A stretch of 64,000 nt of DNA from Rhizobiales bacterium UBA3584. Lineage in GTDB: Bacteria > Pseudomonadota > Alphaproteobacteria > Rhizobiales > Devosiaceae. The notes beneath the pieces were generated by a model, which was given only the letters and a program-made list of their open reading frames with translations, had not been told where the DNA came from and ran no database searches. Below, piece by piece: positions 1 through 42,264 of the stretch (the first letter of the stretch is position 1; the number at the start of each line of letters is the position of its first letter). A program made the position numbers and the translations under genes. The stretch covers positions 62,001-126,000 of the forward strand of contig DFMV01000063.1 of NCBI GenBank assembly GCA_002375765.1. The letters are read 5' to 3'.

Positions 1-365
1 CAATTGGATATGCAAACCATGGCGTCCGCACAGTGCGCGTTGACCATGTACTCGACACTGTCGGCGATCACCTCGCGGGAGGGTAGGGAATAGAGCATCC
101 CGTCATGGCCCATCGCGATGCCGTCATCGACCGCGATCGTGTTGAATTCCTTGGCCACACCACCGGCGCGCTCGATTTCTCGCGCCACCATCTGCCCCAG
201 GTCTTTCAGATGCACATGGCCCGGCACGAACTGGGTGAAAGAATTGACGACGGCAATGATCGGCTTGCCGAAATCGCCATCCTTCATGCCGGTGGCGCGC
301 CAAAGGCCGCGGGCGCCGGCCATGTTGCGGCCATGGGTGGTTGTGCGAGAGCGATATGCGGGCAT
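1..365 (-). CDS. ilvD: dihydroxy-acid dehydratase, N-terminal part (cut by window edge)
   Basis: This gene would make the dehydratase that converts 2,3-dihydroxy-3-methylvalerate or -isovalerate to the 2-oxo acid in isoleucine/valine synthesis, in the cytosol. It is missed as a complete ORF because it runs off the left edge; 121 codons are readable from an ATG at 365. The N-terminus [20 protein letters not shown], then [10 protein letters not shown] and [10 protein letters not shown], follows the E. coli IlvD type closely. The visible part ends at MVCISN, just before the Cys expected to bind the Fe-S cluster. It diverges from the gene at 595, with about 230 bp between the two starts. Identity is near certain from these family motifs; the catalytic C-terminal domain lies outside the window. 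Confidence 0.95.
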
Positions 366-486
366 GAGGTCACCTGCGGAAAAAGAAAAATTGTCGGCTC
401 TTGGCCCGTCCCGGTCGGCGTCTCCTCGGGCACCGCCGGAACCACCCCCTATCTCTAACGCCGCTGGGCCGGAGTGTAAAGACAAA

Positions 487-509
487 CCGTACCGTAACGT
501 ACGGTACGG
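487..509. promoter_or_regulatory. perfect inverted repeat, candidate operator between ilvD and a quinoprotein gene
   Basis: The arms CCGTACCGTA (487-496) and TACGGTACGG (500-509) are perfect reverse complements around a 3-nt centre. No T-run follows, so it does not look like a terminator. The compact symmetry and the place in a divergent intergenic region suggest a repressor operator, perhaps TetR-like; the regulator is unknown. Confidence 0.5.
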
Positions 510-594
510 CAGAAATTTGTTCTGCTCGGTTGCCCCGGCGGGCCGGATCGCGCAATAGATCACTTTTTGGAAGTTTCGCCTCGGGGAGGGCCTT

Positions 595-1908
595 ATGTCG
601 GTCTGGACAATCTTGCTGGTGATCGCGGTTCTTGCGGTCGCAATCGTTGGCGGCTTCTATGTGTGGTGGAATACGCGCGTCAAAACGTACACTCCCCAAT
701 TCGGCACAAAGCCGTCCATTCCCTCTGCCCAGCCCCAGGGCGCTGTTCCCATGCTCAAGATGCCGACGGCGCGCGGCTGGGTTGGCGGCGCCAAACCAAG
801 AACGGCGGCGGGCCTCAAGGTCGCCGTGTTCGCCGAGAAACTCAAGCACCCCCGCTGGGTCTATGCGCTGCCCAATGGCGATGTGCTGGTCGCTGAATCT
901 GCAACCATTCCCCGTAAGGTCAGCGGCTTCATGGATTACGCCATGAACCGCACCATGAAACGGGCGGGGGCGACGTTTCCCAATGCCAATCAGATCACGC
1001 TGTTGCGTGACGCGGATGGCGACGGTGTGCCCGAAATCCGCGAAGTGTTCCTCAAGGGCCAGCACCAGCCTTTCGGCATGGCCCTGATCGGCTCGACTCT
1101 CTATGTGGGCAATTCCAACAGCGTTGTTGCTTTCCCCTATGAGGATGGCCAGACCAGCATCGAGGCTCAGGGCAAGACCATTTTCACAATGAAGGATGGC
1201 GGCCACTGGACCCGGAACCTTATCCCCAGCGCCGACGGAACCAAGCTCTATGTTGCGATCGGTTCACTGTCCAACATTGCTGAAGAAGGCTTTGAAGTCG
1301 AGGAGGGTCGGGCCTGCATTGTCGAGCTCGATCTGACGACAGGCCAGAATCGCGAGTTTGCCGGCGGCCTGCGCAACCCGGTCGGCATGGCCTGGGAACC
1401 GACGGACGGGAAATTGTGGACTGTCGTCAACGAGCGTGATGGTCTGGGCGACGAAACACCTCCTGACTATCTGACTTCTGTAAAAGATGGCGGCTTTTAC
1501 GGATGGCCCTATTCGTATTGGGGCGACACGGTCGACGACCGCGTGCAGCCGCAGCGGACCGATCTGGTCGCCAAGGCAACGGCGCCCGATTATGCACTTG
1601 GCGGGCATACGGCTTCGCTGGGGCTGTGCTGGCTGCCGGCCGGTACGCTCCCTGGTCTTCCTGAGGGCATGGTGATCGGTCAGCACGGCTCCTGGAACCG
1701 CTCGAAGCTTTCGGGCTACAAGGTTATTCTCGTGCCCTTTAAGGACGGAAAGCCGTCAGGCGAACCCATTGAAATCCTTGGCGGCTTCCTTTCCGAGGAT
1801 GAGAAATTCTCCAATGGCCGCCCGGTGGGCGTCGCTCTCGCCAAGGATGGTGCATTGCTGGTTGCCGACGACGTTGGTCACATCGTCTGGCGCGTAACCG
1901 CCGCTTAG
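595..1908 (+). CDS. membrane-anchored PQQ-dependent sugar (sorbosone/glucose-type) dehydrogenase
   Basis: This is a 437-aa beta-propeller protein of the glucose/sorbosone dehydrogenase family, which oxidises aldoses in the periplasm using PQQ or a related quinone. A hydrophobic segment at residues 5-25 should act as an uncleaved N-terminal anchor. Family blocks visible in order are [39 protein letters not shown] and [12 protein letters not shown]. The ATG has a strong GGGGAGGG site about 5 nt upstream. There is no cytochrome c domain, unlike the related gene at 6124. The stop overlaps the convergent YjbR gene by 4 nt. The exact sugar substrate cannot be read from the sequence, and PQQ use is a family inference. 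Confidence 0.85.
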
Positions 1909-2270
1909 TCGGTGATCCCGATTTCCTGACGCGCCTTGCGCGTCAGGCCGGCGGCCACAAGCGCATAGGAGCGCTTCACATAGGCTTCGAGTTCGGACGC
2001 GGACAGCGGTGCTCCTTCCGCGACCGATACCCATTTGCGCTTGGCAAAATAGGGAGCCTGGTCGACGCCATCGAGCGTTGTGAGCAGTTCAAAGCTCTCT
2101 TCGGTGCATTTGAAGGTGACATGCGCTTCATCCTTGTCGGCGCTCAAAAGAACGAACACCTTGCCGCCGACCTTGGCGACATGGGACTCCCACTGATCGA
2201 CCAGTGAGGTCCCCGCCATTGCCAAAACGAAGGTCTCAAAACCCTTCTTGCCGAAGATACCGGCGGCCAT
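1905..2270 (-). CDS. MmcQ/YjbR family protein
   Basis: This 121-aa protein belongs to the MmcQ/YjbR (CyaY-like fold) family, whose members are small cytosolic proteins annotated as DNA-binding on structural grounds. The family pattern is visible in the FKCTEESFELLTT block, the YFAKRKWVSV block typical of the middle of the fold, and the final helix ELEAYVKRSYALVAAGL. No catalytic residues are known. It lies just upstream of the PreP-like gene's stop on the same strand, separated by 3 nt, so they may share a transcript. Function in the cell is unknown. Confidence 0.8.
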   Translation of the reverse strand: MAAGIFGKKGFETFVLAMAGTSLVDQWESHVAKVGGKVFVLLSADKDEAHVTFKCTEESFELLTTLDGVDQAPYFAKRKWVSVAEGAPLSASELEAYVKRSYALVAAGLTRKARQEIGITD

Positions 2271-2273
2271 GAT

Positions 2274-5177
2274 TCACAGCACCTTGGAAACGGCGAGAAA
2301 TCCGTTCCGCTCGCGGTTTGCGGCAGTTATCGATTTCTCCGATCCCATGGCAACGATATGCCCGTTGCGGGCGACTTCATCGAGAAGATCCGCCGCCTTC
2401 GCGAAATCGGCTTCAGAGGTCGAGAGCACCTGCTCGCGGCGCTTTTGCCGGTAGTCTTCGGTCACGCCCGTCAGCGTCCGAACCAGCGCGGTATAGCCCT
2501 TGGCATCGGGCAGAAGATAAGGGTCGAGATCACCGATTGTGCCGATGATGGAACGGGCGATGTCGGACTGTGAAACGCCCTTGCGCAGATAGGCAGGGGC
2601 GGCGTCGTAGATCTCGAGCGTTGCGACCAGATTGGGGTCGCGATAGGAGCCGAACGCATAGGTGTCGGCGAGAGGATTGAAGCTCGCGAACCCTCCATAC
2701 GCTCCGCCTTCGACGCGAACCTTGTCCCAGAGATAGGTGGTGCCGAGATATTTGGTGACCACCGACAGCGCGCCCGACGGCTCATGGCCGAGCGCCTTGA
2801 GGTTCACCCCCTTGGCAACGTAGTTGACCTGAGCCGGAATGGTCAGGCCCTCATTGGCCGGATGGGGCAGGGGCGACCAGTCGGCCCGGACAAAATCGTG
2901 ACGCGGGAGACGCTGGATGAAGGCTCTGAGCTCGTCCGCAAACCCCGGCCATGCCGCACCATCGGTTGTGACATTGGCAATTGCCGCATTGGCGTTGATG
3001 AGATGGGCGCGAATATCCTCAAGCGCCGATTGGACCGAAGCCCAGTCGTTCTCGATCTTTTGCGCCAACTCACGCAGGAACAGCAATTGGGTGACGCCGC
3101 CAGTCTGCTCGGATAGCCAATCGGCTTCGTGCAGCGAGGCGCGGAGCCGGGTGAAGACATATTGGTGGCCCGAAGGGACAAGCGAGGCCTCGGTTCGCGC
3201 CTTGTCTTCCGCAACGATCTGACGGATGCGATCGCGATTGTCCAGCCGGGCATCGGTCAGGATATCATGAACGATATCAAGCATCTCATTGGTTTTATCG
3301 GACGTGGCCTTGGCCCGGAGGATCAAAAAGGCAGCCGCTTCGTCGCTGTCGAGGATTGCCGAATTGAGGCGCGAAATCCCGATGCCGCCAGTCGAGCGCC
3401 CGATGCGCTGTGTGAGCGCGACGAAATCGGCTTTGGAGGTTCCGGTCTGCTTGAGTGCGCGGGAAAACAGCGGGAGATAAGGCAGCAGCTCGCGCGGCAG
3501 GGTTTTGAGATCGAAGCCAAGATCGAGATAGACGATACCGTTTGTGGCGATGTCGTGATAGAGCGTCCGCACACCCTCAACTGCCAATTCCTCAGTGGGG
3601 ATGCTCATCCCCTCGCGCGGCAGATCGTCCACTGTCAGGGTCGGAATTTTCGCGAGCTCTTCGGGCTTGTCGGGAGTGTTCTGCAGGGCCTTGAGCTTCT
3701 TGGTGGTCTCGACCGCGGCGATGATGTCGTCGTCGTTCATCGCCGCGCGCGCAGCATCGAGCCGTGCCCGTTCGACCGCCTCTTCGCGCTCGGCCTGCTC
3801 CGGATCGGGGCGCAGGACCAGAGTGGTGCGGTGGGTGTTGTCGAGCAGATTGGTGCGAATGAGATTTTCGATAACCTTCTCACCCGAGGCGATGCGGGCC
3901 TTGAGGCTCGTCAGCGCCTTTTCAAAGCGCAGCCCGTCGAGCGGATCGCGGCCATAAAGCCAGTTGCTCAAGGCGCCGAAAAAGTAAGCAATTCCGCGAG
4001 GATAGCCGCCGGTGTTCCGTTCGCGCAACTCGAACTCCAGCGAGTTGAGCGTCGCTTCAATCGTCGCATCATCAATGCCATGCTCGGCCAGATGGGCGAG
4101 GGTGTTGAGGATCAGGGTCTCGATCCGGTCCGCATCGTCCCCATCCGCGCCCCGCAAGCCGAAATTGAGAACCGGCTGGGACAATTCGATGGCCGAGGAA
4201 ATGATGGCTTCACCCAGCCCGGATTCGATCAGGGCCTTGTGCAGCGGCGCCGCGGAATTGCCGACCAGTGCGCGGCGCATGACAGTGCGAGCCAGCTGTT
4301 CCTCGATGTCATCGGTCGGATCGACCATCCAGTTCAGTGTGACGAAGGACGATCGCTTGTTGGCGTCGTCGGCCGGATAGGTCTTTTCATAGCGACGCGG
4401 CGCATCGAAGCGCTTTTGTGGCGTATGTGCCGGTGCTTTATCGCCTCTTTCAAAGCGCGAGATCACGGCATCGAGCAGTTCAAGCCGCTTCTCGGGGTCG
4501 TCGTTTCCGTAGAAAATGATCTGGGCGTTGGAAGGGTGATAGTAGCGTTTGTGGAAATCTCTGAACTGTTCGTAGGTCAGGTCGGGCATGACCCGCGGAT
4601 CGCCGCCACTATAATTGGAATAGACTGCGTCGGGGAAAAGTGATTGCAGCGCGTAGGCGTAATTGACCTGGTCAGGTGACGAAAAGCCGCCCTTCATTTC
4701 ATTGAAAACCACGCCCTTGAAGATCAGCGGGTCATCGGGGCTTTCGGCCTCGTAATGCCAGCCCTCCTGCTGGAAGGTTTCGCGGGTCAGGAGCGGAAAA
4801 AACACCGCGTCCAGATAAACTTCGGTCAAGTTGTAGAAATCCGCGAGGTTCTGGCTGGCCACCGGATAGACGGTCTTGTCCGGAAAGGTCATCGCGTTGA
4901 GGAAGGTGTGCAGAGAACCTTTGAGCATCTCGACAAACGGCTTTTTGACGGGGAACTTTTCCGAGCCGCAAAGCACTGAATGCTCGAGAATGTGGGGCAA
5001 GCCGGTGGAATCGTCGGGTGGGGTGGCAAAGGATACGCCGAACACCTTGTTCTCGTCGTCGTTAATGAGCGAAAGTACCTCTGCGCCGGTCTTTTTGTGC
5101 CGGTAATGGCGCACCAAGGCGTTGACCTCGTCGATCTGCTCTTCGGCGATCAACTCATAGGCGGGGTGGTGCGACAT
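2274..5177 (-). CDS. PreP-type M16C zinc metallopeptidase (presequence protease family)
   Basis: This is a 967-aa member of the large M16C insulinase-like family, clam-shell proteases that degrade short unfolded peptides. The inverted zinc motif HILEH is at residues 62-66, inside TGLPHILEHSVLCGSEKFP, which is diagnostic of the PreP branch. The downstream NEMKGGFSSPDQ block fits the usual helix of the active-site half. The length matches single-chain PreP proteins with four homologous domains. I chose the ATG at 5177 (MSHHPAYELI) because AGAGGAGC lies just upstream. The frame stays open for 79 codons further upstream, but that stretch shows no family similarity. It diverges from the secreted protein at 5333. 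Confidence 0.93.
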   Translation of the reverse strand: MSHHPAYELIAEEQIDEVNALVRHYRHKKTGAEVLSLINDDENKVFGVSFATPPDDSTGLPHILEHSVLCGSEKFPVKKPFVEMLKGSLHTFLNAMTFPDKTVYPVASQNLADFYNLTEVYLDAVFFPLLTRETFQQEGWHYEAESPDDPLIFKGVVFNEMKGGFSSPDQVNYAYALQSLFPDAVYSNYSGGDPRVMPDLTYEQFRDFHKRYYHPSNAQIIFYGNDDPEKRLELLDAVISRFERGDKAPAHTPQKRFDAPRRYEKTYPADDANKRSSFVTLNWMVDPTDDIEEQLARTVMRRALVGNSAAPLHKALIESGLGEAIISSAIELSQPVLNFGLRGADGDDADRIETLILNTLAHLAEHGIDDATIEATLNSLEFELRERNTGGYPRGIAYFFGALSNWLYGRDPLDGLRFEKALTSLKARIASGEKVIENLIRTNLLDNTHRTTLVLRPDPEQAEREEAVERARLDAARAAMNDDDIIAAVETTKKLKALQNTPDKPEELAKIPTLTVDDLPREGMSIPTEELAVEGVRTLYHDIATNGIVYLDLGFDLKTLPRELLPYLPLFSRALKQTGTSKADFVALTQRIGRSTGGIGISRLNSAILDSDEAAAFLILRAKATSDKTNEMLDIVHDILTDARLDNRDRIRQIVAEDKARTEASLVPSGHQYVFTRLRASLHEADWLSEQTGGVTQLLFLRELAQKIENDWASVQSALEDIRAHLINANAAIANVTTDGAAWPGFADELRAFIQRLPRHDFVRADWSPLPHPANEGLTIPAQVNYVAKGVNLKALGHEPSGALSVVTKYLGTTYLWDKVRVEGGAYGGFASFNPLADTYAFGSYRDPNLVATLEIYDAAPAYLRKGVSQSDIARSIIGTIGDLDPYLLPDAKGYTALVRTLTGVTEDYRQKRREQVLSTSEADFAKAADLLDEVARNGHIVAMGSEKSITAANRERNGFLAVSKVL

Positions 5178-36447: not shown

Positions 36448-36876
36448 ATGGATCGGGCGATGAGCGGGACGGTGGAGCCGGACTGGGATGCCGTGCGGGC
36501 GGAATATGAGGCCGGCAAAGTGCCGATTTCGGAAATTGCCGCGCGTCACGGCGTTTCGCGCAGCGGGATCAATGCGCGCGTCAAGGCCAAGGGCTGGCCG
36601 ATGCGCAAGCCGACGGTCGGCCATACGCAACGCACGACGCTGATAAGGCGCATGTTTCGCGTTCTCGAACGCCAACTCAACCTGCTCGACGAGGAGATGA
36701 CATCGGTGAGCAACACGGAAGTGACAATGCTGGGCAATCTCGTGCGATCGCTCGACAAGCTGATCGACCTCGACAATGCCGAACGCAAGATCGAAAAGAC
36801 CAAGCGCCCGAGCGCCGAGATGGCAGCCATCAAGCAACGGCTGGCCGAACGCATGGCCGAGATCGAACGCAAGTGA
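36448..36876 (+). CDS. helix-turn-helix protein, GTA g1-like (small-terminase position)
   Basis: This 142-aa protein has an N-terminal helix-turn-helix (DWDAVRAEYEAGKVPISEIAARHGVSRSGINARVKAKGW) and a helical C-terminal half rich in Glu/Lys with LNLLDEEMTSVSNTEVTMLGNLVRSLDKLID. It stands where RcGTA-type clusters place g1, which encodes a small terminase-like DNA-binding protein. Its stop overlaps the terminase fusion's GTG start by 4 nt (GTGA), the usual g1-g2 coupling. ATG 36460 is an equally possible start. DNA recognition for packaging is the inferred ancestral job. Confidence 0.7.
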   Translation: MDRAMSGTVEPDWDAVRAEYEAGKVPISEIAARHGVSRSGINARVKAKGWPMRKPTVGHTQRTTLIRRMFRVLERQLNLLDEEMTSVSNTEVTMLGNLVRSLDKLIDLDNAERKIEKTKRPSAEMAAIKQRLAERMAEIERK

Positions 36877-39269
36877 GCGTCGATGACCATGCGGGAGACG
36901 ACGACCTTGCCGGTTTTGAAGAGCGGGTCGCCTATTGGCGTGAGCATGCCGACAGGATGCCGGACGAAGAGGTCATCGAATGGACCTTCGCCTGGGATTT
37001 ATGGGGCCGTGACGAACAGCGCGCCCCCAAGGGCGACTGGACGACCTGGCTTTTGATTGGTGGACGCGGCTCGGGCAAGACACGGGCCGGTGCCGAATGG
37101 GTCCGCGAACTTGCGACCGGCGAGCGACCCGTCAGCCCCATAGCGCTGGTGGGCGAAACCATGGCCGAGGCGCGCGCGGTCATGGTCGAGGGTGTTTCGG
37201 GGCTCAAGGCGATCCACCCCTACAATGAGGCGCCGCGCTATGAGGCGAGCGCGGAGCGGCTGGTCTGGTCCAATGGCGCTGTGGCGCTGCTGATGCCGGC
37301 CAACGATCCCGAACGGTTTCGCGGGCCCCAATTTGCCGCCGCATGGTGCGACGAATTGGGATGCGGTGCGGTGGACAAGGGGCCGAACGCGCCCAACGCG
37401 TTTGGCGACCCCAAAAGCGCCGAGGACAAGCGACCGCCATTTTCGAGCGGCGCGCCCGATCCGCTGATCCAGCGCCAGATGCTGCGGGCGTGCCACCAAT
37501 ACTGGCGGGAAGCGGGGGCGCACAATCCCGTGTCGGGCATCTATGGCGCACCGATGCTCGATGCCGAGCGCATATATCTCTGGTGCTGGGACGCGCGGCC
37601 CTATCCGGCGTTTCCCGGCATGCCCGACATCTGGTCGGACGCTGCCAATTACGACACGGGGCATTGGCTGAACGGGCGGTTGGGGGCGGCGAGTGCCGAG
37701 GAGCTTTTGGCCGCCATGGCCGATGAGTTCGGAGTGCCGGTCGAGGCAATCGATATACGGGCGCCCATGGTGCATGGGCTGGGAATCGAGGCGGTGACCA
37801 GTCTGCGCGACGCGTCGGCGGGGCTGGTCGAGGCGCTGGGACTTTCGGTGCGCGATGGGGAGGCGGGGATCGTCTGGCGGGCCGGGGATACGCGGTCGGT
37901 TGTCGAGATGGCGCACGCGGATCTGGTGGCAGGCGAGGGGGCTATCGTTTCACGCAAGCGCGGCGATTGGGCCGAGCGGGCCGGGCGGCTGACGCTGAGC
38001 TATTCCGACAGGGACCGCGATTATCAGACGGCGACCGCCCTGGCGGTGGCGCCGAAAGGCGAACGCTATGCGGGGGCGGAAATGGGGCTGGTGCTCGATC
38101 CGGCGGATGCGGGGGGCGTGGCTGAAGCCATGTTGCGGGCCATGCGCCGGGGCGAGGACGGATTGGAGTTTGCGCTGCCGCCTTCGATGCTGGCGCTCGA
38201 GGCGGGCGATATGGTGGCCGTCGAGGGGCAGGCGGACGGGCCGTTCGTGATCGGCACGGTGCGCGACGGGGCGGTGCGGCAGGTTTCTGCCTTGGCTTTC
38301 GGGGGAACGATCAACGGGGTGGCAGGCACTGCAGAGCGACGCATGCCGCAGATCAGCCCCCCGATTGCCGCGACCCCGCTCATCACCATTGCGCATCTGC
38401 CGGCGGGCGATGGAGGGACCGAGCTTGTAGCGGCGGCAATGTGCGATCCCTGGCCAGGGCCGATCAGCCTGCGCGAAACCGAAACGGGAACCGAGCTGGC
38501 GCGGCTGGCGGGGGCAGGGACGCTGGGTGTTCTGGCGCAGCCTCTGGCGGCGGGGCCAAGCGGAATTTGGGATCGGGCGGGTGGGATCGTCCTGTCATTG
38601 TATGGCGGGCATCTGGCGTCTGCCGCGCCGCAGGCGGTGCTGGCAGCGAGCAACCGGGTGGCGGTGGAGACCGATGCCGGACATTGGGAACTGGTCGGGT
38701 TTGAACAGGCCGAACTGATCGAGGCTTCGACCTATCGGCTGACGGGGTTGTTGCGGGGGCAGGACGGGACGCGGGCCGGTGAAGCGTCGGCGGGCAACCG
38801 GGTGCTGGTTTTGAACGGCTCCTGCGTGCGGTTTGCAGTGCCGCAGAGCGCGCTGGGCGATACGCGGACTTTGCTTGCCTATGCCGGGCCGCGTGATGCG
38901 GAGGGCACGGCGCTGGGCGTTGATGTGGATATCGGCACGGCGCTGCCCCTGGCGCCGATGCACCTGCGGGCGGTTCGCGACGGGAGCGGCGATATTGCCC
39001 TGAGCTGGATCCGGCGGGGCCGGGTGGGCGGCAACGGCTGGACCTATGGCGACATTCCGCTCGACGTCGTGCCCGAGCACTATCGGGTTTGTATTTTCGA
39101 TGGCGGGACAGCGGTGCGCGTCGAAGATGTCGGCGCGGCGGGCTGGACCTATTCGGCGGCCGACCAGACAGCCGATTTCGGGGGTCCGGCGGGCGGGTTC
39201 AGTTTCACAGTTCAACAGGTTAGCCCGGTCCTTGGCGCGGGGCTGGCCGCACAGGGAGTTTATCCATGA
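36873..39269 (+). CDS. in-frame fusion: GTA large terminase ATPase N-terminus joined to g15 tail protein C-terminus
   Basis: This 798-aa reading frame joins parts of two GTA proteins. Residues 1 to about 163 are the start of a phage/GTA large terminase: WTTWLLIGGRGSGKTRAGAEW with the Walker A GGRGSGKT at 63-70, ALVGETMAEARAVM, and RFRGPQFAAAWCDEL with the Walker B region near 154-161. From CGAVDKGPNAPNAFGDPKSAED (164 on) it is the end of the g15 TIM-barrel tail protein and its C-terminal domains (DLIQRQMLRACHQYW-like block, CWDARPYPAFPG, GHWLNGRLG, later TYRLTGLLRGQDGT). The nuclease half of terminase and all genes g3 to g14 are gone. The join is at about 37350-37364. No stop interrupts it. 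Whether it is expressed is unknown. Confidence 0.9.
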   Translation: MSVDDHAGDDDLAGFEERVAYWREHADRMPDEEVIEWTFAWDLWGRDEQRAPKGDWTTWLLIGGRGSGKTRAGAEWVRELATGERPVSPIALVGETMAEARAVMVEGVSGLKAIHPYNEAPRYEASAERLVWSNGAVALLMPANDPERFRGPQFAAAWCDELGCGAVDKGPNAPNAFGDPKSAEDKRPPFSSGAPDPLIQRQMLRACHQYWREAGAHNPVSGIYGAPMLDAERIYLWCWDARPYPAFPGMPDIWSDAANYDTGHWLNGRLGAASAEELLAAMADEFGVPVEAIDIRAPMVHGLGIEAVTSLRDASAGLVEALGLSVRDGEAGIVWRAGDTRSVVEMAHADLVAGEGAIVSRKRGDWAERAGRLTLSYSDRDRDYQTATALAVAPKGERYAGAEMGLVLDPADAGGVAEAMLRAMRRGEDGLEFALPPSMLALEAGDMVAVEGQADGPFVIGTVRDGAVRQVSALAFGGTINGVAGTAERRMPQISPPIAATPLITIAHLPAGDGGTELVAAAMCDPWPGPISLRETETGTELARLAGAGTLGVLAQPLAAGPSGIWDRAGGIVLSLYGGHLASAAPQAVLAASNRVAVETDAGHWELVGFEQAELIEASTYRLTGLLRGQDGTRAGEASAGNRVLVLNGSCVRFAVPQSALGDTRTLLAYAGPRDAEGTALGVDVDIGTALPLAPMHLRAVRDGSGDIALSWIRRGRVGGNGWTYGDIPLDVVPEHYRVCIFDGGTAVRVEDVGAAGWTYSAADQTADFGGPAGGFSFTVQQVSPVLGAGLAAQGVYP

Positions 39270-40210
39270 GTTCGACGGCGCGGCTCGATCTGCCGCTGAT
39301 CGCCTCCGAGCAGGCGCAAAAACACGTGACCCACAATGAGGCGCTGCTATTGCTCGATGCGCTGGTGCAGATCCGGCTTGTCGGGCTGGCGGTGATTGAA
39401 CCGCCTGCCGATCCCGAGGCGGGCGACACCTATGGCATCGGGGCGATGGCGACAGGGGCGTGGGAAGGCCGTGACGGGCAATTGGCGGCCTGGAGCGAGG
39501 GCGGCTGGCGGTTTGCCGAACCGGCTGAGGGCTGGTTGGCATGGGATATCGCCGGCGGCCAGCCGATAATGTTTCGGGCCGGGAACTGGGCGCCGCTTTT
39601 CAATGGATTGGCGGGGATGGGGATCGGAACGGACCCTGATGCGACCAACCGGCTGGCCGTGCGTTCCGAAGCGGCTCTGTTTACAGCGATCCCTGATGGA
39701 GAGGGCGGCAATGGCGATGTGCGGCTGACGCTCAACAAGGAGGACGGGGCCGACAGCGCGACGCTGATCTTCCAGTCGGGTTGGTCGGGGCGGGCCGAAA
39801 TCGGGCTGGCGGGGGATGATGATTTCACCTTCAAGGTCTCCGATGACGGGGCCGATTTCAAGACCGCGATGAGCCTGGAAGGCGCAACCGGGTTCGTGCG
39901 GTTTTCGAGCTTTGCGGGGTGCGCGGTGAGCTTTCCCACAATTGCCGGAGGCTTTCTGGCCGCCGAGACCGGTTATGTGGTTCCGACACCTGAAAGCGGG
40001 ACGACCGACGATGTGGATACCATCGAAGGTGGGTTCGATGGCGCAACGCTGATTGTCACCGGGACGGCGGGCAATGCGCTGACCTTTCGCGACGGGACCG
40101 GAAATTTGAAGCTGGGCGGCGATCGGGTGCTCGATGCTTTCGAGGATGCTCTGATGCTCGTCAGGCGCGGGAGCGACTGGATCGAGTTGTCGTTTTCCAA
40201 CAACGGCTGA
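39266..40210 (+). CDS. DUF2793 protein, GTA head-spike/tail-fibre-like
   Basis: This 314-aa protein starts STARLDLPLIASEQAQKHVTHNEALLLLDALVQ, the diagnostic DUF2793 block found in GTA head-spike (GhsB-like) and prophage fibre proteins. GDTYGIGAMATGAWEGRDGQLAAW follows. The C-terminal half is beta-rich and Gly/Asp-rich, as in fibre shafts. It overlaps the fusion gene's stop by 4 nt, so it was translated with g15 in the intact cluster. It is complete and undamaged here. Confidence 0.85.
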   Translation: MSSTARLDLPLIASEQAQKHVTHNEALLLLDALVQIRLVGLAVIEPPADPEAGDTYGIGAMATGAWEGRDGQLAAWSEGGWRFAEPAEGWLAWDIAGGQPIMFRAGNWAPLFNGLAGMGIGTDPDATNRLAVRSEAALFTAIPDGEGGNGDVRLTLNKEDGADSATLIFQSGWSGRAEIGLAGDDDFTFKVSDDGADFKTAMSLEGATGFVRFSSFAGCAVSFPTIAGGFLAAETGYVVPTPESGTTDDVDTIEGGFDGATLIVTGTAGNALTFRDGTGNLKLGGDRVLDAFEDALMLVRRGSDWIELSFSNNG

Positions 40211-40246
40211 TTTCGAGGGACCACAGGCCTCTTGGCCTCCCCATCG

Positions 40247-40346
40247 TCATCCCGGGCGAGGGCCCGGGACCCAGGAACCGGCAGCGTTTGTGGTTCTGTC
40301 TCAAGCACCGAGTGTACTGGGCCCCGGCTCAAGGCCGGGGTGACGG
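40247..40346. repeat. full-length CCCGGG palindrome mosaic repeat, copy 8
   Basis: TCATCCCGGG...CCCGGGA (from 40247) and GGCCCCGG...CCGGGGTGACG (to 40345) frame a spacer with AACCGGCAGCGTTTGTGGTT. It is colinear with 20687-20784 and 13506-13600. It sits between the DUF2793 and muramidase genes within the GTA remnant. Confidence 0.85.
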
Positions 40347-40402
40347 GTCTTTGGGAAGGCAGTCATTGGGTGCAAATCATTGATTCAAAAGGGAGAAGCA
40401 AT

Positions 40403-41152
40403 ATGCCGGCTTCGCGCTGGACGCTTTGCCTTGCCAAGATTTTGGAGCATGAGGGCGGTTATGCCGACCATCCCTCCGATCCGGGCGGGGCGACCAATAT
40501 GGGGATCACCCACAAAACGCTGGCCCGCTGGCGCGGGGCCGATCCGTGGTGGAATCTGCCAAAATCGGAGATCAAGGCGCTGGAGCGGGCCGAGGCGTCG
40601 GCGATCTACAAGGCACTGTATTGGGATAGATGCAAAGCGGGCTCGCTTCCGGCGGGACTGGACCTCGCCGTGTTCGACTATGCGGTCAATTCCGGGCCCG
40701 ACCGCGCGGTGCGGGTGCTGCAGGCGCTGGTGGGCGTGGTGCAGGACGGATTCGTGGGGCCGTTGACGCTGGCGGCCGTGCAAAAGCGCGACCCGCGCGC
40801 CCTGATCGAAGCGCTGTGCGACCAGCGCATGGGCTTTCTGCAACGGCTTGCCACATGGGCGACCTTCGGGCGGGGTTGGACGAGCCGCGTCACGGACATT
40901 CGTGCGACGGCGCTTTCTGCTGTCGGACTGCAACCACCTTCGCAAAGCACAAAGGAAATCAAGGAAATGAACGTTTTCGACGGCTACAAGACCTATATCG
41001 TCGGCGCTCTGATGCTGGTTGTCGGTATTGCCCAGAGTCTGGGGTTCGATATCCCCATGTTCGGGGAATATTCGGGGCCGCAGATGGTCATGGAGGCACT
41101 GGCGGTGATCTTCCTGCGGCGCGGGCTCAAAAGCGAGCTTTCAAACAGCTAG
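40403..41152 (+). CDS. GTA/phage-type N-acetylmuramidase with C-terminal holin-like segment
   Basis: This 249-aa lysis protein has the GH108-type catalytic start ILEHEGGYADHPSDPGGATNMGIT, where Glu of EGGY is the likely acid. It continues with LPAGLDLAVFDYAVNSGPDRAVRVLQ and a peptidoglycan-binding-like tail (VGVVQDGFVGPLTLAAV). The last 61 residues form a separate-looking membrane segment (KTYIVGALMLVVGIAQSLGF). An in-frame ATG at 40967 with AAGGAAATCAAGGAAATG context could start this part alone. In intact GTAs such an enzyme releases particles by lysing the cell. GGGAGAA precedes the ATG at 40403. No lysis regulator is nearby. Confidence 0.85.
   Translation: MPASRWTLCLAKILEHEGGYADHPSDPGGATNMGITHKTLARWRGADPWWNLPKSEIKALERAEASAIYKALYWDRCKAGSLPAGLDLAVFDYAVNSGPDRAVRVLQALVGVVQDGFVGPLTLAAVQKRDPRALIEALCDQRMGFLQRLATWATFGRGWTSRVTDIRATALSAVGLQPPSQSTKEIKEMNVFDGYKTYIVGALMLVVGIAQSLGFDIPMFGEYSGPQMVMEALAVIFLRRGLKSELSNS
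40967..41152 (+). CDS. possible internally started holin-like peptide (61 aa)
   Basis: Inside the muramidase gene an in-frame ATG (40967) has AAGGA 7-8 nt upstream, a better ribosome site than many real starts here. The product MNVFDGYKTYIVGALMLVVG... is one membrane segment plus a second hydrophobic stretch, the size of phage holins. It may be translated separately in addition to being the C-terminus of the muramidase. Confidence 0.35.
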   Translation: MNVFDGYKTYIVGALMLVVGIAQSLGFDIPMFGEYSGPQMVMEALAVIFLRRGLKSELSNS

Positions 41153-41162
41153 ACCTCGGCAG

Positions 41163-41188
41163 AAACGCCCTTCGGGTGAAGGGCGTTT
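41163..41188. terminator. hairpin terminator between the muramidase and the broken MBL gene
   Basis: AAACGCCCTTC (41163-41173) and GAAGGGCGTTT (41178-41188) form a perfect 11-bp stem around GGGT. It lies between converging genes, so it probably ends transcription from both sides, although the T-run is short. Confidence 0.7.
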
Positions 41189-41201
41189 CCGCTGCTTGAG
41201 A

Positions 41202-41929
41202 TCAGGCCGATTTGGTGTCGAAGCGATAGGTTTCACCAGGCTGCGCCGTGGTAATCGCGCCCAGAGACGGGAACGGAAAGTGATACCCGCCGACCAGGCC
41301 GCCCTGTTCGCTCATCTGTTGCAGGATGGCGTGACGTGGGCGGTCTAGGGGTTCATGTCGAACTGGACGTGCCAGTCGGGATTGGTCACAAACAGTGCCG
41401 GGTAGTGTGCCACGTCCGCAATGTAGCTGAAGCTCGCGGTTCCCGACCCGATGGTAAAGGCGGTTTGCCCCGGCGCGTGGCCGAAACAGGGGGTGGTCTT
41501 GAAGACGTCTTCCACGGTCGCGCCAGGCTCGAAGAGCACGATCTTGCCCTCGGGATAGTCGGCCAGCACACGCCGGACCGCAAGAAAGCCCCCGCGCCCA
41601 GCTTCGGGAACGCCAGCCATCTTCTCGTCATCCATCCAATGATCGAATTCGGGCTGTGGGATGTAAACGGTGGCATCGGGATAAACCAGTGATCCGTCTT
41701 TGCGGCGCAGACCATTGATATGATCGCCATGCAAATGGCTCATCAGCACAACGTCGATACTGGCGGGTTCGATGCCGGCCTTTTCCATGTTCTCATGCAA
41801 TAGCCCGGTTCCGGCCGGGCCATTGTCGGCAAAGCCTGTATCGAGGAGATATCGCTTGCCGCCCGCCTCGACGACGAATGGGGTGTAGGGCACCATGATG
41901 TGATCGGTGGGGAGGCCGCAAACGTTCAT
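41202..41929 (-). pseudogene. metallo-beta-lactamase-fold hydrolase, frameshifted and 5'-truncated
   Basis: The first 194 codons (41929-41345) give LLDTGFADNGPAG, VLMSHLHGDHINGL (the zinc motif HxHxDH), CFGHAPGQTAF and VQFDMNP, then a stop. One extra C in the CCCC at about 41347-41350 would restore the frame through RHAILQQMSEQGGLVGGYHFPFPSLG to a stop at 41202-41204, giving the normal family C-terminus. The N-terminal 50-60 residues that usually precede LLDTG are also missing, and an in-frame stop lies just upstream of the ATG. The metal site itself is intact. A sequencing error in the C-run could explain the frameshift but not the missing start. Confidence 0.8.
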
Positions 41930-41964
41930 TTGAAGTTCAGAAAGATCACGCTAAAGATGCGGAT

Positions 41965-42264
41965 ATGAAAAACGCACTTTTTAGCCACTTTTTGTCTGTG
42001 ATTGTCGTCGCGACCCTGCTTGCTCCCGCCGGCTCGGGAGCCGCTTTCGCGCAGGACGCATGCTGGGACAATTCGACGATCCAGGCCGCCCTCGCTGAAG
42101 GGCGCATTCAGCCGGTGGCTGCGGTGCTCTCGCGCGAGGGGATTGATCCTTCCACCGAAGTACTGAGCGTCAAGGTCTGTGAGCAGAGCGGGGCGCTGGT
42201 CTATGTGCTTGCGGTGCTCGAATCCTCGGGGCAGGCGCGAAATCTCACGTTGAATGCACAATAG
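41965..42264 (+). CDS. small exported PepSY-like protein
   Basis: This 99-aa protein has a signal peptide to about AFAQD (residue 30), then a compact domain with QDACWDNSTIQAALAEGRIQPVAAVLSREGID and VLSVKVCEQSGALVYVLAVL, resembling a single PepSY unit. It precedes the FeuP-like response regulator by 24 nt and probably shares its transcript. A similar small PepSY protein often sits beside feuPQ, where it may tune the sensor; this is recalled rather than proven. Confidence 0.6.
   Translation: MKNALFSHFLSVIVVATLLAPAGSGAAFAQDACWDNSTIQAALAEGRIQPVAAVLSREGIDPSTEVLSVKVCEQSGALVYVLAVLESSGQARNLTLNAQ

What the first reader, a model, noticed from the sequence alone, without database searches (positions are those of the whole stretch)
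36873..39269. Gene transfer agent cluster collapsed into one in-frame terminase-g15 fusion gene
The reading frame starts as a GTA large terminase with Walker A at residues 63-70 and Walker B near 154-161. At DELG-CGAVDKG (about 37350-37364) it switches to the end of the g15 TIM-barrel tail protein and stays in frame to the normal g15 end. The terminase family has a WCDEL-type sequence at this spot and g15 has an EIGC-AVDKG-type one, so short shared sequence could have mediated a deletion of g3-g14 and the flanking halves. It is rare for such a deletion to leave a 798-codon open frame with intact upstream and downstream coupling (GTGA at both ends). The product may be a dead relic, or a new protein joining an ATPase half to a tail domain.
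Basis: partly seen in the sequence, partly recalled or inferred. Interest (0 to 1): 0.88.

Follow-up and report, generated by a model that had tools for sequence, protein, structure and literature searches.

The report
Recurrent collapse of gene-transfer-agent cluster
A bacterium has lost almost all of its domesticated-virus (gene transfer agent) gene cluster and kept one fused gene made from its two ends, and the same fusion, joined at the same amino acids, appears to have formed again and again in related bacteria.

Summary
Window 36873-39269 is one 798-codon frame: a gene transfer agent (GTA) terminase up to Walker B (residues 1-161), then the last 637 residues of g15. Sister genomes carry the intact cluster; relative to G008, 13,825 bp are gone. 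A complete genome of the same species (G157) has the identical frame, so it is no assembly chimera.

It is not a rare accident. The same join, W-x-x-E-[L/I/V/F]-G in one register, occurs in 40 distinct sequences from Devosiaceae genomes and metagenomes, including 9 of 136 family genomes. Fused genes scatter among intact ones in trees of both halves; one clade is rejected (p 0.0002); no haplotype is shared beside the join. So it probably arose many times. DNA similarity at the two ends does not explain that. The same terminase site is also joined to other partners, some out of frame.

Best reading: recurrent GTA-null deletions at a preferred site; the protein is probably a by-product (join predicted disordered), though selection for it is not excluded.

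The parts
36460..36876 (+). g1-like small terminase subunit gene, directly upstream, overlapping the fusion by GTGA (start codon chosen by me)
   Evidence: PHROG 1206 terminase small subunit, E 1.9e-10; no Pfam or NCBIfam match
36873..37355 (+). Terminase (g2) N-terminal half of the fusion, residues 1-161, with Walker A (37059-37082) and Walker B (37332-37355)
   Evidence: Terminase_6N E 1.1e-15 for residues 61-162; 59% identity to G008 terminase residues 32-199
36510..37288 (+). Divergent tract: g1 and terminase N-part not of the G008/G009 type although both flanks are (edges approximate)
   Evidence: blastn against G009 finds no match between 36511 and 37017 and 77% for 37017-37354, against 89% in g15; G008 and G009 are 92% alike there
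37289..37351 (+). 63 bp identical to the G008 terminase, ending at the join
   Evidence: alignment
37352..37354 (+). Join; letters CGA shared by the terminase and the g15 ends (G009 as reference)
37356..39269 (+). g15 (megatron) C-terminal part of the fusion, residues 162-798: last part of the GTA TIM domain, Phage-tail_3 and C-terminal domains, with stop codon
   Evidence: 89% aa identity to G008 g15 residues 606-1252; PHROG 4271 tail protein E 7e-117; NCBIfam GTA_megatron profile 643-1296 of 1299
39266..40210 (+). Retained downstream gene with DUF2793 (tail-fibre-like), overlapping the fusion by ATGA
   Evidence: Pfam DUF2793 E 5.6e-30
40232..41152 (+). Retained downstream N-acetylmuramidase (lysis) gene; the start codon is uncertain
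   Evidence: Glyco_hydro_108 and PG_binding_3; NCBIfam holin_dep_muram, below its cut-off

Best explanation
The fusion is the scar of an in-situ deletion that removed the back of the terminase gene, g3-g14 and the front of g15 (13,825 bp relative to G008). Shown: the deletion, the fused frame, and its presence in two assemblies of the species. Well supported: the same deletion, in the same protein register, has happened independently many times in Devosiaceae and is not one allele passed around. Inferred: the cell can no longer make GTA particles. Inferred: the terminase Walker-B codons (TGG-N6-GA) are a preferred deletion end in this family, joined to sites that share only a few letters (g15 codon ~606, g15 codon ~80, the lysis gene), by a break or replication fault that I cannot name. 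Inferred: such GTA-null alleles are repeatedly favoured or tolerated because GTA production kills the producer, and the fused protein is mostly a young by-product, neither a working packaging motor nor a working TIM barrel.
For: Intact clusters in G008/G009 and in-situ deletion. g3-g14 DNA of G008 hits G000 only as short dispersed stretches of under 200 bp (40 of 171 candidates scored) and the G008 portal finds nothing in G000. Same frame in the complete genome G157; 15 SNPs in 20 kb, none in the frame. Same join in 33 of the 120 proteins listed, in 9 of 136 family genomes, 40 distinct sequences in all (after removing 4 duplicates). The short-fusion label needs 25 changes, 16 of them forced by starred branches, on the terminase tree and 27, 23 forced, on the quick g15 tree; 7 changes for 8 fused genomes, and one clade rejected, p-AU 0.00019. 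In the 60 bp beside the join the nearest sequence is a fused one in 0 of 10 cases on the left (2 ties) and 1 of 7 on the right (1 tie). Crossovers differ: WFTEL/WFSEL, WCDEL, WCDEI, WCDEV, WSDEL. The same terminase site is joined to g15 codon ~80 (9 rows, 8 distinct) and to the membrane part of the lysis gene out of frame (P0232, P0241). Two fused fragments, P0228 and P0212, appear to lose the g15 frame soon after the join, as a by-product would. AlphaFold2 gives pLDDT under 50 at 150-206 and 233-272.
Against: No DNA feature found makes the sites special: similarity at the join is ordinary in most relatives and hairpins are not consistently exceptional (no shuffled control). Fused branches show no relaxed selection, which a dead gene would show unless the fusions are young. 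All 10 species-level joins of this terminase site to g15 that were found in family genomes (8 short, 2 long) are in frame, which a pure by-product need not be. Deletions with other breakpoints exist in the family and outside it (G321, terminase 265 to g15 659), so the terminase site is not the only deletion end. Whether P0232 and P0241 are independent events is unresolved.
Confidence: 0.6

Rival explanations
1. The chimeric protein is selected: only this register gives a useful product (for example an ATP-binding or tail-hub decoy that interferes with GTAs or phages), so the same join is fixed repeatedly.
For: Same register W:W, E:E, G:G in 44 of 44 short-type rows although the crossover letters differ (that search pattern assumed this spacing, but the alignment-based table, which did not, shows only P0049 and the long type joined elsewhere); all 10 such joins found in genomes in frame; omega on fused branches 0.08-0.19 for g15, not raised over intact sisters; Walker A residues at least 90% conserved among 32 fused proteins.
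Against: Most fused rows sit beside an intact relative, so they may be too young to tell; the join and much of the TIM remnant are predicted unfolded; the same terminase site is used in out-of-frame joins (P0232, P0241) and in a second type that keeps nearly all of g15; two fused fragments, P0228 and P0212, seem frame-broken after the join.
Confidence: 0.2
2. One ancestral fused allele spread among Devosiaceae by homologous recombination (it is small enough to be moved by GTA particles, the intact cluster is not).
For: Same join everywhere; a mosaic breakpoint lies 63 bp left of the join in G000; no such fusion outside the family in the listed rows of 397 order genomes (list cut); fused rows are on average slightly more alike than fused and intact rows on the right side (0.82 against 0.80 next to the join, 0.61 against 0.58 farther away).
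Against: The nearest sequence beside the join is almost never a fused one; the slight excess does not rise towards the join; G083 is 93-94% like intact G133 over the 180 bp left of the join and G072 95% like intact G070 over 60 bp; crossover letters differ; one clade rejected.
Confidence: 0.08
3. An ordinary one-off relic made by random microhomology.
For: Three shared letters at the join; other GTA deletions with other breakpoints are common in the family.
Against: Recurrence of the same join is not expected from random joins: over 1600 better matches exist in 26 of the 28 relatives tested; G010 has 57 and G087 103.
Confidence: 0.05
4. Assembly or binning chimera.
For: The window's assembly has 87 contigs.
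Against: The complete single-contig genome G157 has the same frame; fusions also lie on the single-contig genomes G069 and G103.
Confidence: 0.01

Closest known systems
RcGTA-like head-tail cluster (g1-g15) of Alphaproteobacteria
   Same: Terminase half, g15 half, g1-like, DUF2793 and lysis genes are those of the family's cluster, in place
   Different: g3-g14, the back of g2 and the front of g15 are missing
Pseudogenised or lost GTA clusters, discussed as cheater lineages by Kogay et al. 2024 (PMC10883770, passages seen)
   Same: A GTA-null state that recurs across lineages
   Different: Here many losses share one join, which those passages do not mention
GTA megatron / g15 baseplate protein (NCBIfam NF048004)
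   Same: Residues 156-794 match profile 643-1296 of 1299
   Different: 503.5 bits against a cut-off of 800; the front half, with most of the TIM barrel, is replaced by terminase
Other in-frame GTA deletion fusions: capsid-g15 in G090, protease-R15 in G108, capsid-g15 P0058 and terminase-g15 P0049
   Same: In-frame fusion left by a cluster deletion
   Different: Each breakpoint was seen once here; not seen to recur

Membership tests
GTA/phage large terminase | Walker A and Walker B with catalytic Glu (motifs recalled) | tested here: met
   GGRGSGKT 63-70 and FAAAWCDE 154-161; Terminase_6N E 1.1e-15
GTA/phage large terminase | C-terminal half of the protein (nuclease domain, recalled) | tested here: not met
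   Homology stops at Walker B; residues 162-798 are g15
GTA megatron (g15) | Score over the curated NCBIfam cut-off along the full length | tested here: not met
   503.5 of 800 bits; profile 643-1296 of 1299
GTA megatron (g15) | Complete GTA TIM-barrel domain | tested here: not met
   Only profile 204-299 of 299 present
RcGTA-like particle-producing cluster | Portal, capsid and tail genes g3-g14 present | tested here: not met
   No long match to cluster DNA; no match to the G008 portal in G000 and only a 28% match in G157. HK97-type capsid genes exist elsewhere in G000 (1) and G157 (2), assumed prophage and not examined
GTA cheater lineage | Non-producer that still receives GTA DNA | not testable with these tools
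   Needs transfer assays

The most novel reading that the evidence does not exclude
Devosiaceae carry a sequence-directed process that cuts or mis-joins the GTA cluster at the terminase Walker-B codons and seals it onto a small set of sites of the form GG-N6-GA (g15 codon ~606, g15 codon ~80, the lysis gene), so that GTA production is switched off repeatedly and almost identically, as a mutational switch between GTA producers and non-producers.
Probability: 0.2. Interest if true: 0.88.

Novelty: new variant of a known kind. Interest (0 to 1): 0.62.

Why it matters
How GTAs persist although producers die is an open question, and loss of GTA production is the predicted cheater outcome. A loss allele that is recognisable by one join, recurs in many species and leaves a readable scar lets losses be counted, dated and compared with habitat, and gives a defined junction to detect in cultures and metagenomes. 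If the recurrence is mechanistic, it points to an unknown deletion process; if selective, to a chimeric protein that evolution keeps reinventing.

Tried and rejected
Homology hot spot: 57 to 56,530 better cells in the 28 of 34 intact relatives where the motif was found; 57 (G010) and 103 (G087) are the two lowest, the other 26 have over 1600. With the terminase site fixed, the g15 site is beaten by 4 to 3276 downstream positions in the 24 located of 30 tried, and the codon-80 site by 0 to 3115 in 15. Hairpins: the best local DNA hairpin near the terminase site is beaten by 0 to 25% of the gene's windows in the 13 printed of 16 relatives (it is the gene's strongest in one, G121), near the g15 site by 2 to 14% in 11; no shuffled control was run. 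Mobile carrier: no row spanning both halves among the 80 viral loci listed of 227, 15 listed of 16 plasmid records and 15 listed of 173 phage records. G504, which seemed to span both halves, is an intact cluster, and the 798-residue terminase frame of G153 holds a nearly full terminase. A folded ATPase-TIM chimera was considered and is not supported by the model (only 32 rows, pTM 0.37). Independence of the lysis-gene class could not be resolved. Foldseek's phage and GTA tail-tip matches are to the g15 side by description; its further matches were not examined.

Rows dropped before counts: one search left out G010 (frame broken), P0055, P0008, P0068, G111 (short) and P0020, P0059 (duplicates); one search left out duplicates P0020, P0059, P0068, P0032, P0042 and non-fused proteins ranked below 64, and 6 partial rows were not counted; the genome tree left out G157; one search left out G157, G157b and G504, lacked the right side of G072, and counted the 2 long-type genomes on the left only. 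In one search I chose the triples; 4 of the 10 fused lineages with DNA were tested (one of them long type).

Full report
WHAT IS THERE. The frame at 36873-39269 is real. Residues 1-161 are the front of a GTA large terminase with Walker A and B; residues 162-798 are the back of g15, starting inside its TIM-barrel domain. A small-terminase-like gene precedes it (GTGA overlap), and a DUF2793 gene (ATGA overlap) and a muramidase gene follow. The gene labels g1-g15 are recalled from RcGTA.

NOT AN ARTEFACT. The window lies in G000 (87 contigs). G157, a one-contig genome marked as the same species, has the same 798-residue frame; over 20 kb the two differ at 15 bases, none inside the frame.

HOW IT FORMED. 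G008 and G009 carry the intact cluster. The window matches their g15 end from 37352 onwards at 88.7-88.8% DNA identity and their terminase up to 37351 (G008) or 37354 (G009). Relative to G008, 13,825 bp are missing. The g3-g14 DNA of G008 finds only short dispersed stretches in G000 (40 of 171 candidates scored). The G008 portal finds nothing in G000 and a 28% match in G157; one HK97-type capsid gene on another contig of G000 and two elsewhere in G157 are assumed to be prophage and were not examined.

A MOSAIC. From about 36510 to 37288 the window is not of the G008/G009 type (no match or 77%, while these two are 92% alike there), but the last 63 bp before the join are identical to G008. So g1 and most of the terminase half were probably exchanged with another lineage, before or after the deletion.

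A RECURRENT JOIN. Of the 120 proteins listed (of 1589 found), 39 join a terminase to g15: 33 at the same place as here, 5 join the same terminase point to g15 residue ~80, and 1 (P0049) joins elsewhere. In 136 genomes of the family, 9 have the short type (two of them, G000 and G157, one species) and 2 the long type. Of 397 genomes of the order, at least 21 are in the family; among the rows listed for the others none spans both halves except G504, which proved to be an intact cluster (the list was cut). The host of the most distant fused protein, P0064, is unknown.

INDEPENDENT ORIGINS. On the terminase-half tree (84 rows, 126 columns) the short-fusion label needs 25 changes, at least 16 forced by starred branches; shuffled labels need 27 on average. 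On the g15-half tree (108 rows, quick method, so stars deserve less trust) it needs 27, with 23 forced; shuffled mean 31. These counts do not tell gain from loss, but regaining about 14 kb is less likely than losing it. With family genomes only, 8 fused rows need 7 changes; holding them together is rejected (p-AU 0.00019), also for the 7 fused genomes other than G000. Fused genes pair with different intact relatives on starred branches in both trees: P0025 with G089, G083 with G133 (together with P0050 in g15), and long-type G078 with G077. In the 60 bp beside the join, the nearest sequence is a fused one in 0 of 10 cases on the left (2 ties) and 1 of 7 on the right (1 tie), so no travelling haplotype is seen; mean identity among fused rows is slightly higher than between fused and intact rows on the right, but no more so near the join than far from it. 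The crossover differs: after W in P0025, P0055 and P0225, after E in most, after EI or EV in others.

WHY THE SAME JOIN. DNA similarity does not explain it. In the 28 of 34 intact relatives with the motif located, between 57 and 56,530 cells of the terminase-g15 comparison score better. With the terminase site held fixed, the g15 site is still beaten by 4 to 3276 downstream positions in 24 relatives, and the codon-80 site by 0 to 3115 in 15. Hairpins are not consistently exceptional. But the terminase end is shared by other partners. Among 120 listed short terminases (of 256 found), 44 carry a tail of 12 or more residues beyond the terminase match, or a match to another cluster gene. Eight of these tails lie in another frame of the terminase region and look like frameshifts. 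Joins within five residues after the W, by BLAST ends, include g15 ~80 (P0210, P0212), g15 ~606 (P0225, P0228), the membrane part of the lysis gene out of frame (P0232, P0241, recognised by resemblance to the end of the window's muramidase gene; P0244 by resemblance of its tail only, it gave no hit), the gene that follows g15 in G022, in frame (P0238), an aminotransferase-domain protein (P0300, PF00155) and an unknown partner (P0265, P0267). Because some of these are out of frame, selection for one chimeric protein cannot be the whole story. The terminase, g15 ~606, g15 ~80 and lysis-gene sites all read GG-N6-GA at the join; this was noticed after the fact and not tested. Against a universal hot spot, G096, G082, G032, G026, G010, G005, G011, G090, G108 and G129 have other breakpoints, and G321 outside the family joins terminase 265 to g15 659.

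IS THE PROTEIN USEFUL? Three-taxon codon models for four fused lineages give omega on the fused branch of 0.13-0.17 (G000), 0.15 (G083), 0.08-0.09 (G078, long type) and 0.19 (G072) for g15, and 0.001-0.08 for terminase halves (G083, G078, G072), not different from intact sisters (2 delta lnL below 1.4); four comparisons among intact rows only gave 0 to 4.4. Outgroup branches are long (1.5 to 8.4), so these are rough. There is no sign of decay in these four, but the fusions may simply be young. Two metagenomic fragments, P0228 and P0212, seem to leave the g15 frame soon after the join, as a decaying gene would. AlphaFold2 (32 fused proteins, mean pLDDT 69, pTM 0.37) gives under 50 at 150-206 and 233-272, the join and much of the TIM remnant, while most of the g15 remainder is modelled at 65-94 and the top structure matches are phage R4C, lambda-like and RcGTA tail tips. 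I therefore hold that a working ATPase or TIM barrel is unlikely.

LITERATURE. Searches for GTA with Devosia, terminase fusion and megatron, gene loss, homing endonuclease, cheater and microhomology listed no title or abstract start that mentions this fusion; only open-licence papers were searched, some lists were cut, and one paper was looked into. In that paper, Kogay et al. 2024 (PMC10883770, passages seen) propose that pseudogenised GTA clusters may be recent cheater lineages, which fits.

VERDICT. Confirmed observation. Mechanism of the preference unknown; protein function unproven and, on balance, doubtful.

Noticed in passing
window 36510-37288: g1 and the terminase N-part are a foreign-looking tract with sharp edges inside otherwise G008/G009-like DNA.
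   Followed up: partly
window 41131-42049: About 730 bp more than G008 in this interval, holding an ORF on the minus strand (41345-41929) that looks like a metallo-beta-lactamase-fold hydrolase (recalled, not searched).
   Followed up: no
L136 (G157:C1:1386000-1397000): The sister strain G157 has a second, distant g15-like gene (34% identity, 935-residue frame) that was not found in G000.
   Followed up: partly
L127 (G090), L122 (G108), P0058, P0049: Other GTA cluster deletions that left in-frame fusions: capsid-g15, protease-R15, capsid-g15 and terminase-g15 at another place.
   Followed up: partly
P0273, P0292, P0293, P0294: GTA terminases cut at W[CL]DELAKW and continued by a short hydrophobic, holin-like tail (likeness recalled); they lie near each other in the tree, so perhaps one inherited deletion.
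   Followed up: partly
P0232, P0241, P0244: Terminase Walker-B site joined out of frame to the membrane part of the downstream lysis gene (P0244 by resemblance of its tail only).
   Followed up: partly
P0228, P0212: Fused fragments whose g15 part appears frame-broken soon after the join, a hint of decay.
   Followed up: no
G000, many contigs: Short dispersed stretches of about 30-190 bp match parts of the G008 GTA region.
   Followed up: no
L119 (G115), L129 (G066): GTA clusters with many broken frames, either decaying or of low sequence quality.
   Followed up: no
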